A stretch of 62,806 bases of DNA from the NCBI GenBank assembly GCA_944324795.1, contig CALUXR010000009.1, positions 1-62,806 on the forward strand. Reading direction: 5' to 3'. Source of the stretch: an uncultured Acholeplasmatales bacterium. GTDB lineage: Bacteria; Bacillota_I; Bacilli_A; Acholeplasmatales; Anaeroplasmataceae. This document shows positions 40,719 through 47,614 of this stretch, one piece after another; within the stretch, counting starts at the first letter, position 1, and each line of letters starts with the position of its first letter. Position numbers and translations under genes: made by a program. The notes under the pieces are model-generated. The model had not been told where the DNA came from. It ran no database searches and saw only the letters and a list, made by a program, of their open reading frames with translations.

Positions 40719-42143
40719 ATGTATTTAGGAATTGATTTAGGTACAAGTGGATTAAAAGCTTTAATAAGTGATGATGAAGGTAAAATAATTGAAAGTTCAA
40801 GTGCTAGTTATGATGTATCTTATGTTGAAAATAATGGGACTGAACAAGACCCTGAAATTTGGATTAAAGCTTTAGATAAAGTGTTAATTGAATTAAAAAA
40901 CTATTTAAAAGAAGTTAAAGCTTTAGCTATTTCAGGTCAAATGCATGGTCTTGTGATTTTAGATAAATTTGATAATGTTATTAGGCCTTGTATTTTATGG
41001 AATGATGGTAGAACAATTAAAGAAAATAATTTATTAAATATAGATAAAGAATTTATATATGATAATACTGCAAATATAAGTTATAGTGGTTTTACTTTAC
41101 CTAAACTTTTATGGCTTTATAATAATGAAAGAGATAATTTTAATAAAATAAATAAAATAATGTTACCAAAAGATTATTTAATTTATTATTTGACAGGTAA
41201 TTTTGTCTCTGATTATACTGATATGTCAGGAACTTTACTTTTAGATGTCAAAAATAGATGTTATAACAAGGAAATGTTAAAACTAGCTAAAATTGAAATA
41301 TCACAATTGCCTATTTTAAAAGAAAGTTATGAAGTTGTAGGTTTAATAAAACCTGAACTATCTTTAAAATATGGTTTTAATAATACTAAAGTTGCGACTG
41401 GAGGCGCAGATAATGCTCTTGCAGCACTAGGTACAGGGACAATTAAAGAAGGATATTGTAATATTAGTCTTGGAACTAGTGGAACTATTTTAATACCTAT
41501 TAAAGAAGTTAAAAAAATAAATAGTTATGGCCTTCATATATTTTCTCATATTAAAGATAGTTATATTATGGGGTGTATATTAAGTGCGGCAAATTGTCGT
41601 AAATGGTGGCTAGAAGATGTTTTAAAGACAAATGATTATTTAGCTGATGAAAATGAAATGATAAATGTCGATACAGCTGATCTATATTTTTTACCATACC
41701 TACAAGGAGAAAGAAGTCCTCATAATAATCCTCTTGCTAAAGGGGCTTTTATTGGTTTAACTAATAATACAACTAAAGCTATGATGTCTAAAGCTATTTT
41801 AGAAGGTGTTGGTTTTGCTTTATATGATTCATATCAAATAGTAAAAGCATCAGGAATTAAAATAAATAATTTAACAATTTGTGGTGGTGGCAGTAAATCA
41901 AAATTATGGTGTCAAATAATAGCTGATATCTTTAATATGGAAGTTAAAACTCTAGCTAATGAACAAGGGCCTAGCTTTGGAGCTATTATTCTAGCAATGA
42001 TTGCAGATAATAAAATAACATTAGAAGATGTAGATAAATTAGTTAATTATACTAATATTTATTATCCTAAATTTGATTATTCTAATAAATATAAATATTA
42101 TAAAAAACTTTATCCAGCTTTAAAAAATGTCTTTAATAGTTAG
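40719..42143 (+). CDS. FGGY carbohydrate kinase, xylulokinase-like
   Basis: 474 residues; RBS AGAGG. FGGY features: IDLGTSGLKALISD, SGQMHGLVILD, PCILWNDGRT, TGGADNALAALGTG and TICGGGSKSKLWCQIIAD. The GQMHGL and LWNDGR patterns favour xylulose-type substrates (XylB/LyxK). Phosphorylates a ketopentose with ATP. Last gene of the cassette. Confidence 0.88.
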   Translation: MYLGIDLGTSGLKALISDDEGKIIESSSASYDVSYVENNGTEQDPEIWIKALDKVLIELKNYLKEVKALAISGQMHGLVILDKFDNVIRPCILWNDGRTIKENNLLNIDKEFIYDNTANISYSGFTLPKLLWLYNNERDNFNKINKIMLPKDYLIYYLTGNFVSDYTDMSGTLLLDVKNRCYNKEMLKLAKIEISQLPILKESYEVVGLIKPELSLKYGFNNTKVATGGADNALAALGTGTIKEGYCNISLGTSGTILIPIKEVKKINSYGLHIFSHIKDSYIMGCILSAANCRKWWLEDVLKTNDYLADENEMINVDTADLYFLPYLQGERSPHNNPLAKGAFIGLTNNTTKAMMSKAILEGVGFALYDSYQIVKASGIKINNLTICGGGSKSKLWCQIIADIFNMEVKTLANEQGPSFGAIILAMIADNKITLEDVDKLVNYTNIYYPKFDYSNKYKYYKKLYPALKNVFNS

Positions 42144-43838: not shown

Positions 43839-43918
43839 TTATAATTATAATAAAAATATGGAAAAATGAGACTTTTTATTGTCTTATTTATAAAAAAGGA
43901 ATAAGGGGAGAGGTGGCA

Positions 43919-44428
43919 ATGTTTAAAGATGAAAAAAATATAATATTAGAATTAAAAAAAGGAAATGAAAAAGCATTTAATATTATTTATCATGAATATT
44001 ATAAATTGATTTTTTATATTATTTATAATATGGTTTATGATTATGAATTAGCTAATGATTTAACAACTGATACATTTATTCAAATGTATAAAAAAATAGA
44101 GCTTCATGATATAAATAAATCTTTTAAATATTGGTTAGTTACAATAGCTAAAAATCTCACTAAAAATTATTTAAAAACGAATATTAAAAATAATAAGTTG
44201 ATTATAAATGAAGATTTAGTTGATGAAAGTCCTGATAATAATAATGAATTATCTAGTTTATTAAATGAATGTAAAAAGCTATTAACACCTTTAGAATTTG
44301 ATATTTTAAATTATCACATTATATTTAATATGACATATGTTGATATTGGCCTTATTTGTAACATTTCAAAGTCTGAAGCACATAGAATTTATAAAAAAGC
44401 TATAGCTAAGTTACAGGCTGGATTGTAG
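43919..44428 (+). CDS. ECF-type sigma factor
   Basis: 169 residues; ATG 43919 with GAGAGG, three codons after a GTG I reject. Sigma region 2: ANDLTTDTFIQMYKKIELHD and KYWLVTIAKNLTKNYLK; sigma region 4: LTPLEFDILNYHIIFNMTYV followed by SEAHRIYKKAIAKLQ. Directs RNA polymerase to stress or envelope genes. The neighbouring second gene looks like a broken anti-sigma factor, so this sigma may be unleashed or regulated differently. Confidence 0.88.
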   Translation: MFKDEKNIILELKKGNEKAFNIIYHEYYKLIFYIIYNMVYDYELANDLTTDTFIQMYKKIELHDINKSFKYWLVTIAKNLTKNYLKTNIKNNKLIINEDLVDESPDNNNELSSLLNECKKLLTPLEFDILNYHIIFNMTYVDIGLICNISKSEAHRIYKKAIAKLQAGL

Positions 44429-44436
44429 GTGATAAG

Positions 44437-45171
44437 ATGAAAAAATTTGATAAAAGAAAATATGAAGAAGAATTTATAAATAAATATGAGGCTAAAAATG
44501 AATATAATAAGGCTAAGGAACAATTAATATTTACTAGCAATCAACAATTTAATTATAAAAAAGTTCCTAGGAAAAGAAGAATTATATAAATAAGTTCAAT
44601 ACTATTATTAGCTAGTATAATTATATTTTTATCTATTATTTTAAATCTCCCTAAAGCTAATAATTCATTAACATATTTAAAAATGGATGTTGTAGAAACT
44701 AATTTAAAAAACAATATTAATCCTAATATTTTAGCGAATATTGAGGGATTATTACCTGAAAAAGAAGAAAATGAATTGAAATATTTTGCTAAACCAAATT
44801 CAAAAATTTTAATTGCAATATATTTAAACAATCCTAATAATTATGAAATTCTACCATCAATAGATAAGAAAATGTATATTAATAAAATAGGTAGGTATTG
44901 GGATAATAAAATGGTAGAAATAGATATAGTAGGTTTAAATGAAGATAGAAATATAGCTTTATTTGGTGAATGTAAATATAGTAAGCATAAAGTTGGTTTA
45001 AATATTTTATATGAATTAGAAAATAAAGTAAAAAAAGTTAATGAATTAAATAAATATAGTAATAAATATTATGTTTTATTTAGTATAAGTGTATTTAGCG
45101 ATGATTTAATTTCTTTAAGTAAAGAAAGAAAAGATTCAATTCTAATTGAAGGTATAGAAGAATATAGATAA
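44437..45171 (+). pseudogene. Interrupted anti-sigma-like gene joined to a DUF234-like tail
   Basis: ATG 44437 has a good AGGTGA RBS 9 bases after the sigma stop. Residues 1-50 (basic, helical, no transmembrane segment) end at an in-frame TAA (44587-44589). Removing that stop restores one frame to 45171: a transmembrane helix (SSILLLASIIIFLSIIL), an extracellular-like domain, then GRYWDNKMVEIDIVG and IALFGECKYSKHKVGLNIL, typical of DUF234 at the C-terminus of AAA ATPases. So an anti-sigma membrane protein has been fused to an ATPase tail by deletion or insertion. The frame from ATG 44683 could express 162 residues of the tail. Confidence 0.6.
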
Positions 45172-45198
45172 GACATTACAAATTTTAGTTCTAACTCT

Positions 45199-45326
45199 AA
45201 GAAACGTGAAAATATGTCATTAAAAAATTAAAGAAACGTGAAAAAACAGTCAAAAAATATTTAAGAAAGGTGAAAATGGACCTTTAAAATATTTAAGAAA
45301 CGTGATAAAATCATATTGGTGATGAT
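45199..45326 (+). repeat. Four AAGAAACGTG direct repeats at exact 32-base spacing
   Basis: AAGAAACGTG (or AAGAAAGGTG) starts at 45199, 45231, 45263 and 45295, each 32 bases apart, about three helical turns. Units share the 10-14 base core and an A/T-rich remainder. They lie between the DUF234-like fragment and the AAA ATPase start. Could be an operator, a cassette border or recombination product. Confidence 0.8.
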
Positions 45327-45328
45327 GA

Positions 45329-46675
45329 ATGAGAAGAAAAATATATGATTTGATGAAGGAATGGAAGGAAAAGGAAAATGGAACTAGTGCTTTAATGATT
45401 GATGGTGCGCGTAGAGTCGGAAAAAGTTATATTGTAGAAGAATTTGCTAAAAAAGAATATAAATCATATATATTGATTGATTTTAATAAAGCCGATGATA
45501 TTATTATGAATTTATTTGATGATTTAACAAATTTAGATATTATTTTTCAATTATTAGAAGAAATATATAAAGTTAAATTATATGAGCGAGAATCTTTAAT
45601 AATATTTGATGAAGTTGAATTATGTAAAAAAGCTAGAAGAGCTATTAAATATTTAGTAGCTGATGGTAGATATGATTATATAGAAACAGGCTCTTTATTA
45701 TCTATAAAACAAAATGTAGAAGGAATAGTTATACCATCTGAAGAAAGACATTTAGAGCTTAATCCTTTTGATTTTGAAGAGTTTTGTTGGGCTTTAGGTG
45801 AAGAAACGATTTGTGATTTAATTAGAGAATGTTTTAAAAAGAAAATATCAGTAGGTCCTGTTTTACATAGAAGATGTATGTTATTATTTAGAAAATATTT
45901 AATAGTTGGAGGAATGCCACAAGCTATCTTAACATATTTAACTAGCAATAGTTTTTCAGAAACTGATAAAATGAAACGTAATATTTTAAAACTTTATCGT
46001 GATGATGTTAGTAAATATGCCTATGGCTATGAATATAAAGTTAAGAGTATTTTTGATGAAATACCTAGTGCTTTAAGTAGGCATGAAAAGAAATTTAGAT
46101 TAGCTGATATAGATAAAAATGCTAGATTTAGAGATTATGAAAGTGCCTTTTTTTGGCTTGATGACGCGATGATTGTAAATATTTGTTTTAATACAACTAA
46201 TCCTATGTTAGGTCTTAATTTAAATAGAGATAGAATCTCTTTAAAATGTTATATGGCTGATACAGGTCTTTTAATTAGTCATGCTTTTGATGAAAAAATG
46301 ATTGCTTCTAATGATTTATATGTAAAAATATTATTTGATAAAGTAGAAGTTAATTTAGGAATGATTTATGAAAACGTAGTAGCTCAAATGTTAAAGGCAA
46401 ATGGCTATAAACTTTATTTTTATAGTAATTATAGCAAAATTAATGAAGATAAGATGGAAATTGATTTTTTAATTACTAATAATAATATAACTAATAGGCA
46501 TAATTTAATACCTATTGAAGTTAAGTCTAGCAATAAAATTTCTTTGACTTCATTGAATAAATTTATAAAAAAATATAATGAACAACTAGCTATACCATAT
46601 GTTATTTATAATGGTGAATTTAAGATGGAAAACAATATTATTTATATTCCTTATTATATGGTTATAAGTCTTTAG
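45329..46675 (+). CDS. AAA_14 ATPase with DUF4143 domain
   Basis: 448 residues. N-terminal AAA: Walker A GARRVGKSY, Walker B LIIFDEVEL, sensor-like ETGSLLSI. HLELNPFDFEEF marks the AAA_14 family; the C-terminal DUF4143 domain ends with a nuclease-like PIEVKSSN (restriction-endonuclease-like fold). Function in cells is unresolved, proposed to be a mobile or defence-like ATPase. GTGATG precedes the ATG; the 32-base repeats lie immediately upstream. Confidence 0.88.
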   Translation: MRRKIYDLMKEWKEKENGTSALMIDGARRVGKSYIVEEFAKKEYKSYILIDFNKADDIIMNLFDDLTNLDIIFQLLEEIYKVKLYERESLIIFDEVELCKKARRAIKYLVADGRYDYIETGSLLSIKQNVEGIVIPSEERHLELNPFDFEEFCWALGEETICDLIRECFKKKISVGPVLHRRCMLLFRKYLIVGGMPQAILTYLTSNSFSETDKMKRNILKLYRDDVSKYAYGYEYKVKSIFDEIPSALSRHEKKFRLADIDKNARFRDYESAFFWLDDAMIVNICFNTTNPMLGLNLNRDRISLKCYMADTGLLISHAFDEKMIASNDLYVKILFDKVEVNLGMIYENVVAQMLKANGYKLYFYSNYSKINEDKMEIDFLITNNNITNRHNLIPIEVKSSNKISLTSLNKFIKKYNEQLAIPYVIYNGEFKMENNIIYIPYYMVISL

Positions 46676-46709
46676 TGTTTAGTTATGTTAATAAAAATAA
46701 ATATTTTAA

Positions 46710-46738
46710 TTGCAAGTTGAATTTAATTATGATATATT
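46710..46738 (+). promoter_or_regulatory. Promoter of the preQ1-regulated operon
   Basis: TTGCAA (46710-46715), 17-base spacer, TATATT (46733-46738). Confidence 0.7.
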
Positions 46739-46755
46739 AAGTAAGGTTTTTTAAC

Positions 46756-46828
46756 CAGACAGTTCGTGACCATCCTGTCTATAAACAAAACTAGGGAAAG
46801 ATGGGCGCATTGGCGCTTTTTTTCTTAG
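46756..46828 (+). ncRNA. PreQ1-I riboswitch with terminator
   Basis: P1 arms AGACAG (46757-46762) and CTGTCT (46775-46780), loop TTCGTGACCATC, then an A-rich tail ATAAACAAAACTAGGG whose CUA-type end closes the pseudoknot. A GGCGC/GCGC stem with T-run follows as expression platform. Aptamer form matches class I preQ1 (a 34-45-nt H-type pseudoknot). Confidence 0.82.
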
Positions 46829-46861
46829 CATGGCACAAATTTAATTGTGAGAGGAAAAAAC

Positions 46862-47614
46862 ATGTTAGAAAAAATTAAAAAAGAATTAATTGAATTTAAA
46901 TTATTATTAAGATCTGTTCCAAATGCGGTAGTTGTTTTATTTGTTGCGGCTATTATAGCGATGAATCTACTTGCTAATAAAAGTATTAATTTAAATGTTA
47001 GTTGGTTAGCATTAGATTGTGGATTTATAGTCTCTTGGTTTGCTTTTTTAGCTATGGATATTATAACTAAACATTTTGGGCCTAAAGCGGCTACAGAAAT
47101 ATCTATATTTGCAATATTTATTAATTTATTAATATGCTTATTTTTATTTTTAGGAAGTTTAATTCCTGGCACTTGGGGAGAATCATATGTAGTTGGTAGT
47201 GAAGATGTTATTAATAATGCTTTAAATAATACATTTGGTGGAACTTGGTATGTTTTACTTGGTTCTACAATTGCCTTTATAGTTTCAGCTATAGTAAATA
47301 ATTTTACAAATTATGGCATAGGTAAGCTATTTAAACGTAATCCTGATAGTCTTCCTGCATATATTAGTAGAACCTATATTTCAACAGCTTTAGGTCAATT
47401 TGTAGATAATTTATTGTTTGCATTAATTGTAAGTCATATCTTTTTTGGTTGGTCATTTTTACAATGTCTAATGTGTTCAATAACAGGAATGATAGTAGAA
47501 TTAATATGTGAAATGTTGTTTTCTTATATCGGTTATTATATAAGCAATAAGTGGCGTAAAGAAAATGTTGGAAAATTATATTTTGATTATAAAAAGGAGA
47601 ATAATTTAAAATGA
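46862..47614 (+). CDS. Queuosine precursor transporter (YhhQ/VUT family)
   Basis: 250 residues; ATG 46862 has AGAGG upstream. Six or so transmembrane helices (about 20-40, 50-70, 80-105, 140-160, 175-200, 210-235). Motifs FLAMDIITKHFGPKAATEIS and YISRTYISTALGQFVDNLLF are characteristic of the DUF165/YhhQ family, which takes up queuosine precursors. The preQ1 riboswitch directly upstream confirms the substrate. Confidence 0.92.
   Translation: MLEKIKKELIEFKLLLRSVPNAVVVLFVAAIIAMNLLANKSINLNVSWLALDCGFIVSWFAFLAMDIITKHFGPKAATEISIFAIFINLLICLFLFLGSLIPGTWGESYVVGSEDVINNALNNTFGGTWYVLLGSTIAFIVSAIVNNFTNYGIGKLFKRNPDSLPAYISRTYISTALGQFVDNLLFALIVSHIFFGWSFLQCLMCSITGMIVELICEMLFSYIGYYISNKWRKENVGKLYFDYKKENNLK

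What the first reader, a model, noticed from the sequence alone, without database searches (positions are those of the whole stretch)
45199..45326. Four direct repeats with exact 32-base period before an AAA_14/DUF4143 gene
AAGAAACGTG-type cores begin at 45199, 45231, 45263 and 45295. The rest of each unit is only A/T-rich, so the period and core are what is conserved. Thirty-two bases is about three DNA turns, placing the cores on one helical face. Both flanks are parts of the same ATPase family (DUF234 fragment, AAA_14), so it may be a cassette boundary, an operator array or a recombination hotspot.
Basis: seen in the sequence. Interest (0 to 1): 0.62.

Follow-up and report, generated by a model that had tools for sequence, protein, structure and literature searches.

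The report
Private promoter repeats of defence ATPase genes
The four repeats are real, and they are one case of a rule found across several bacterial phyla: this abundant, untested family of candidate phage-defence genes carries, in front of each gene, its own evenly spaced row of repeats whose sequence follows the DNA-reading part of the protein that the gene makes, which suggests that each protein controls its own switch.

Summary
Four AAGAAA[C/G]GTGA cores begin at 45199, 45231, 45263 and 45295, exactly 32 bp apart, just before the AAA_14/DUF4143 gene at 45329. The array is one case of a family rule. Of 110 family genes picked by protein alone, 60% have strong upstream direct repeats, against 1.3% of 150 control genes. 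The spacing goes with clade. In the window's clade (190 genes, several phyla) 160 have strong repeats, 158 of them at 32-34 bp. In a second clade all 43 genes peak at exactly 23 or 46 bp. Another clade (26 genes) has none at either spacing. Cores differ between paralogs, point one way (GTG on the coding strand in 106 arrays, CAC in 2), overlap the promoter, and in three genomes searched lie essentially only at their own gene. Across 155 genes, array similarity follows the protein's winged helix (partial r 0.29; largest of 500 permutations 0.135), not the ATPase or nuclease parts; Arg268 of the recognition helix goes with GTG. Best reading: each ATPase-nuclease, a candidate defence protein (PDC-S01), reads a private operator array and controls its own promoter, probably by repression. 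Binding and repression are inferred. A cassette end or recombination hotspot is not supported.

The parts
45199..45212 (+). array copy 1, core AAGAAACGTGAAAA
   Evidence: sequence; TRF; genome-wide pattern search
45231..45244 (+). array copy 2, core AAGAAACGTGAAAA
45263..45276 (+). array copy 3, core AAGAAAGGTGAAAA
45295..45308 (+). array copy 4, core AAGAAACGTGATAA, overlapping the extended -10 of a predicted promoter
45283..45311 (+). predicted sigma-70-type promoter TTTAAA-17-TAAAAT with TG before the second hexamer; a second candidate is 45261-45290. Both lie within the array region. Consensus match only
   Evidence: 6 found, 3.9 +/- 2.3 expected, so weak alone; phase-locked -10 hexamers next to GTG across the clade
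45318..45323 (+). Shine-Dalgarno-like GGTGAT before the ATG
   Evidence: sequence; inference
45329..46675 (+). AAA_14/DUF4143 ATPase gene (448 aa), PADLOC candidate PDC-S01
   Evidence: Pfam, PADLOC, AlphaFold2 pLDDT 90, pTM 0.91
45386..45787 (+). AAA+ ATPase domain (Walker A GARRVGKS, Walker B DE)
46025..46258 (+). codons 233-310: winged helix-turn-helix (helices 235-250 and 267-279, strands 283-289 and 300-309), the part that co-varies with the array
46259..46672 (+). C-terminal PD-(D/E)XK-type nuclease part (E348, E377-x-D379, E397-x-K399)
   Evidence: conserved columns; fold assignment of the family from PMC12988326

Best explanation
The array is a private, directional operator array. The AAA+-winged-helix-nuclease protein encoded at 45329-46675 binds the four cores through its own winged helix, one protomer or protomer pair per copy, side by side in one direction through the oligomerisation of its AAA+ domains, and so covers the -35/-10 region of its own promoter and keeps its own expression low. 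Paralogs in the same genome carry different array sequences, so most should ignore each other's operators. Shown: the arrays, their family specificity, spacing, orientation and place, their near-restriction to their own gene in three genomes searched, and their co-variation with the winged helix. Inferred: physical binding, cooperative assembly, the sign (repression rather than activation) and relief of repression during infection or stress.
For: Family specificity: z>3 repeats in 60% of 110 family upstreams against 1.3% of 150 controls, Mann-Whitney p=1e-18. Clade-specific period: tree; 160/190 with z>3, of which 158 at 32-34 bp and one each at 29 and 35; 43/43 at exactly 23 or 46 bp in the second clade. 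Copies conserved in a 16-nt core (92%) but not in the spacers (49%); GTG on the coding strand in 106 arrays, CAC in 2; last core ends at a median of 25 nt before the ATG. -10-like hexamers enriched right after GTG (20/47 and 24/64 genes against about 2 per offset), -35-like ones 17 bp before them; best promoter overlaps the array in 61/86 against 35 expected. Sites essentially only at their own gene in three genomes. Array similarity goes with winged-helix identity after control for the rest of the protein: peak partial r 0.29 at residues 245-269, 99% of permutation maxima below 0.107, largest 0.135; holds below 50% and 40% identity and in two separate sets. R/K268 in 100 of 107 GTG arrays against 16 of 46 others. 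Best PDB fold matches are archaeal Orc1/Cdc6 bound to origin DNA. Also in named strains: Segatella copri DSM 18205 (3 copies, 33 bp), Agathobacter rectalis DFI.5.28 (4 copies, 33 bp), Parabacteroides distasonis F1-28 (2 copies, 66 bp).
Against: No binding or expression data. In the 23-bp clade the co-variation has no peak at the winged helix (43 genes). With GTG against residue 268 the number of phylogenetically independent pairs is small (about 4.5 for, 0.6 against; median p 0.22). A smaller co-variation peak lies in residues 345-385. About 16% of the clade lacks a strong array, many of them in one 431-aa group. One paralog of the window gene (C18:38327, 59% identical) has a similar core, so insulation is not complete. 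The promoter calls are consensus matches.
Confidence: 0.68

Rival explanations
1. The protein binds the array through its winged helix, but as an activator or as an assembly platform (a nucleation site for an Orc1-like AAA+ spiral that holds the nuclease inactive until a trigger), with regulation of transcription secondary.
For: AAA+-winged-helix fold closest to Orc1/Cdc6 bound to origin DNA, then Apaf1, MalT and Avs STAND proteins; rigid directional spacing. 23 and 33 bp are 69 and 51 degrees past whole turns (10.5 bp per turn), near the 60 degrees per subunit of an AAA+ spiral (arithmetic, inference).
Against: The arrays sit at the promoter in most genes and the core lies between -35 and -10, the usual place for a repressor.
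Confidence: 0.2
2. The array is bound by a separate host factor, and the link to the gene family is one of gene context only.
For: No binding data. RptR shows that a separate small repressor can act through promoter direct repeats in a defence island (PMC12255303).
Against: Each paralog has its own core and the core tracks the encoded winged helix, also across phyla; an unlinked factor would not follow the gene's own protein into Bacteroidales, Clostridia and Spirochaetes.
Confidence: 0.06
3. The array is the end of a mobile cassette or a recombination or cleavage site of the nuclease.
For: The genes turn over: G005 lacks the 42.2-46.7 kb stretch, G001 has another member before the same transporter gene; upstream flanks 96% identical over 540 nt precede members of different clades in G029 and G021 (L118, L140).
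Against: No copy at the 3' end (1/149) and few further upstream (6/155); no further sites in two other genomes and two isolated single hits in this one; diverged spacers.
Confidence: 0.05
4. RNA-level element: the repeats are leader RNA elements or Shine-Dalgarno decoys (AAGAAAGGTGA resembles a ribosome-binding sequence).
For: The last copies can be transcribed; GTG recalls GGTG.
Against: No stable or unusual fold (z -0.54), no Rfam match at gathering threshold; cores without GTG keep the same period; first copies start about 107 nt before the ATG at the median; same rule in Bacteroidales.
Confidence: 0.04

Closest known systems
RptR and its three promoter direct repeats (EPEC defence island; PMC12255303)
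   Same: A handful of direct repeats overlapping the -10 of a phage-defence locus, used for self-repression; more than one repeat needed for full effect.
   Different: RptR is a separate 9-kDa repressor acting as a dimer on 9-bp repeats with a palindromic core of one sequence; here the likely reader is the ATPase-nuclease itself, units are asymmetric, 23 or 33 bp apart, and differ between paralogs.
PDC-S01 candidate defence genes (PADLOC; PMC12988326)
   Same: The window protein matches three PDC-S01 models over its full length (best 6e-110); ATPase fused to a PD-(D/E)XK nuclease.
   Different: PDC-S01 is described only as an unvalidated single-gene candidate; the passages read in two papers mention no upstream array, private operator or winged-helix reading.
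Archaeal Orc1/Cdc6 with origin recognition boxes
   Same: AAA+ plus winged helix; best fold matches. That such proteins bind repeats near their own gene is from memory.
   Different: No nuclease domain in Orc1/Cdc6; here many paralogs in one bacterial genome, each with private repeats at its promoter, and no sign of an origin.
DnaA-box or iteron arrays of plasmid replication initiators (from memory)
   Same: Directional arrays of near-identical sites next to the initiator gene, with self-control.
   Different: No replicon function seen here; the proteins belong to another family.

Membership tests
PDC-S01 (PADLOC candidate defence family) | full-length match to PDC-S01 profile | tested here: met
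   E 6.3e-110, residues 1-448 of 448
PDC-S01 (PADLOC candidate defence family) | protects against phage | not testable with these tools
AAA_14 / DUF4143 ATPase | Walker A/B and DUF4143 domain | tested here: met
   Pfam above cut-off; invariant GxxxxGK, DE
PD-(D/E)XK nuclease | E...ExD...ExK motif | tested here: met
   E348, E377-x-D379, E397-x-K399; E348 and K399 invariant, E377 and E397 at least 90% in 46 sequences; no nuclease test
Autoregulatory operator array | sites overlap the gene's own promoter | tested here: met
   61/86 against 35 expected; phase-locked -10 hexamers; in the window only consensus matches
Autoregulatory operator array | gene product recognises the site | tested here: inconclusive
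   strong co-variation with the winged helix in the 33-bp clade, none localised in the 23-bp clade; binding not testable here
Autoregulatory operator array | binding represses the promoter | not testable with these tools
   needs a reporter assay
Transposon or cassette end | matching repeat at the other end | tested here: not met
   1/149 genes with a copy downstream
Known RNA element (Rfam) | match at gathering threshold | tested here: not met
   none in 44000-47500

The most novel reading that the evidence does not exclude
A very abundant family of candidate defence ATPase-nucleases uses a clade-fixed repeat grid (33 or 23 bp, near one AAA+ subunit step) as a loading site for a directional Orc1-like AAA+ assembly on its own promoter, with array and winged helix co-diversifying so that many paralogs in one cell stay mutually insulated, and with loss of that assembly (for example through phage interference or titration by incoming copies) releasing and arming the nuclease.
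Probability: 0.22. Interest if true: 0.88.

Novelty: new variant of a known kind. Interest (0 to 1): 0.74.

Why it matters
PDC-S01 is reported as the fourth most common defence candidate across prokaryotes and has no known mechanism (PMC12988326). A predicted binding site for a large share of this family, with the reading head located to one helix and cultured strains that carry clear examples, makes binding, specificity and regulation directly testable. It also offers a natural set of orthogonal operator-reader pairs, and a way to ask how a genome keeps a dozen or more similar nuclease genes under separate control.

Tried and rejected
Known RNA element: no Rfam match at gathering threshold, no unusual fold. 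Coding repeat: periods of 32, 34 and 23 are not multiples of 3. Mobile end: no 3' copy. Regulon: no or almost no further sites in three genomes. Shared upstream flanks between loci as proof of insertion: partly confounded by an interspersed terminator-like element found before several family genes (L073, L078, L081, L137, L141, L165), so not used, apart from the long L118/L140 match. Winged-helix co-variation in the 23-bp clade: no peak. Searches for a description of the arrays found none in the held papers; preprints and most subscription journals are not held.

Full report
WHAT IS THERE. Four cores begin at 45199, 45231, 45263 and 45295 with an exact 32-bp step. The array is the top tandem repeat of the window and stands 9 sd above shuffles. 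It ends 20 nt before an AAA_14/DUF4143 gene (45329-46675). The core pattern occurs nowhere else in the 1.70-Mb genome except for two isolated single hits. The genome holds 17 DUF4143 matches and more than 20 AAA_14 matches, several of them broken. Read by eye, most of the upstream regions of these genes have direct repeats of their own, with other sequences.

IS IT A FAMILY RULE? I collected 110 family genes from 55 genomes of the same taxonomic family, chosen by protein alone, and scored the best direct repeat in the 160 nt before each ATG against dinucleotide shuffles. 60% have z>3 against 1.3% of 150 control genes from the same loci. On a protein tree the spacing belongs to clades: 56 genes with 32-34 bp (49 by the strict rule), 11 genes with 23 bp (one seen at 46), and a clade of 26 genes in which none is at either spacing (two scored at 60 bp and one at 19). 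With more relatives, from other families of the order and phylum and from Bacteroidales, Clostridia, Spirochaetes, Lentisphaeria, Myxococcales and Succinivibrionaceae genomes, 160 of 190 genes of the window's clade have z>3; 158 of these peaks lie at 32-34 bp (126 at 33), one at 35 and one at 29. In the second clade 43 of 43 genes peak at exactly 23 or 46 bp, 41 with z>3. Of the 30 weak members of the window's clade, eight of the clearest exceptions are 431-432-aa proteins.

ANATOMY. Arrays have 2-4 copies by the rule used. Between neighbouring copies the best 16 nt agree at 92%, the rest at 49%; GTG is phase-locked on the coding strand in 106 of 158 arrays and CAC in 2; the last core ends at a median of 25 nt before the ATG. 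-10-like hexamers pile up right after GTG and -35-like ones 17 bp before them; the best promoter overlaps the array in 61 of 86 genes against 35 expected. In the window a TTTAAA-17-TAAAAT promoter with TG before the -10 overlaps copy 4, but this is a weak match alone. There is no array copy behind the gene (1 of 149). Sites of two other arrays occur only at their own gene in their genomes and not in this one.

WHO READS IT? AlphaFold2 gives a confident model (pLDDT 90, pTM 0.91): AAA+ domain, helical linker, winged helix (about 233-310), nuclease part. Nearest solved folds are archaeal Orc1/Cdc6 on origin DNA, then Apaf1, MalT and Avs STAND proteins, with low TM-scores. For 155 genes I compared array similarity with local protein similarity after removing overall similarity: the signal peaks at the winged helix (partial r 0.29 at residues 245-269), against a largest permutation maximum of 0.135, and the ATPase, linker and nuclease regions as wholes are near zero. 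It holds for pairs below 50% and 40% identity and in two separate sets. At residue 268, on the recognition helix, R or K is present in 100 of 107 proteins with a GTG array and 16 of 46 without; phylogenetically independent pairs point the same way but are few.

MECHANISM. The simplest account is that each protein binds its own array, several protomers in one direction, and covers its own promoter. Shown: array, place, spacing, orientation, family link, co-variation, near-restriction of sites to the own gene. Inferred: binding, assembly, repression, and release on infection. The 33- and 23-bp steps are 51 and 69 degrees past whole turns at 10.5 bp per turn, close to the 60 degrees between subunits of an AAA+ spiral; this is arithmetic and suggestion, not evidence.

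COMPARISON. PADLOC files the protein as PDC-S01, a single-gene candidate, reported as the fourth most common defence across prokaryotes, with validation pending for most such candidates (PMC12988326), and the most frequent single locus in rumen genomes (PMC13356809). The nearest working precedent is RptR, a separate 9-kDa repressor on three 9-bp promoter repeats of a defence island (PMC12255303). I found no description of the present arrays in the held papers. The kind of thing (self-control through promoter repeats) is known; what is new is that an ATPase-nuclease family of this size carries clade-fixed, paralog-specific arrays that follow its own winged helix.

MOBILITY. The gene is accessory: in G005 a sugar-kinase-like gene (the homologue of window 40719-42143, named by eye) directly precedes the same transporter gene, without the stretch that holds this gene and its upstream neighbours, and G001 has a 35%-identical member there. 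In G029 and G021 a 540-nt upstream flank, 96% identical, precedes members of different clades. This speaks for turnover, not for the array as an end. Relatives occur on plasmids, including Segatella copri DSM 18205, whose gene has three copies (TCAAAACGTGAGAAA twice, TCATAACGTGATAAA once) 33 bp apart, and on phage-labelled contigs from faeces without annotation.

LIMITS.

Noticed in passing
window 44437-45171: After an ECF-type sigma factor gene (43913-44428) the frame starts like a short anti-sigma-like membrane protein, has an in-frame TAA at 44587-44589, and runs on into the C-terminal nuclease part of a DUF234 ATPase: a decayed, chimaeric remnant.
   Followed up: partly
window 46754-46800: A PreQ1-I-like riboswitch (27.6 bits, gathering score 39, E 7e-4 in a search of 261 bases) lies before the Vut_1 transporter gene; its leader is conserved in related genomes.
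   Followed up: partly
L023 and L028, upstream of the DUF234-type ATPase genes at G000 C3:68389 and C10:20755: DUF234-type relatives also have repeat-like, partly palindromic sequences before the gene (for example TTTACTTTRAAGTAAAT), read by eye only.
   Followed up: no
L099, L100, L103, L003, L070: A further DUF4143 clade has CATTCCTAAAA-like repeats 40 bp apart in some members; L003 and L070 have a 60-bp spacing.
   Followed up: no
L073, L078, L081, L137, L141, L165: A terminator-like element (AAGCAGGACTTCTCACCCTGCTTTTTATTTT and variants) is scattered before several family genes in different genomes.
   Followed up: no
G312, G381, G319, G339 and others: Relatives with several in-frame TGA codons, as expected in genomes that read TGA as Trp.
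   Followed up: no
protein residues 345-385 (window 46361-46483): A second, smaller co-variation peak with the array lies at the start of the nuclease part; a second DNA contact is possible.
   Followed up: no
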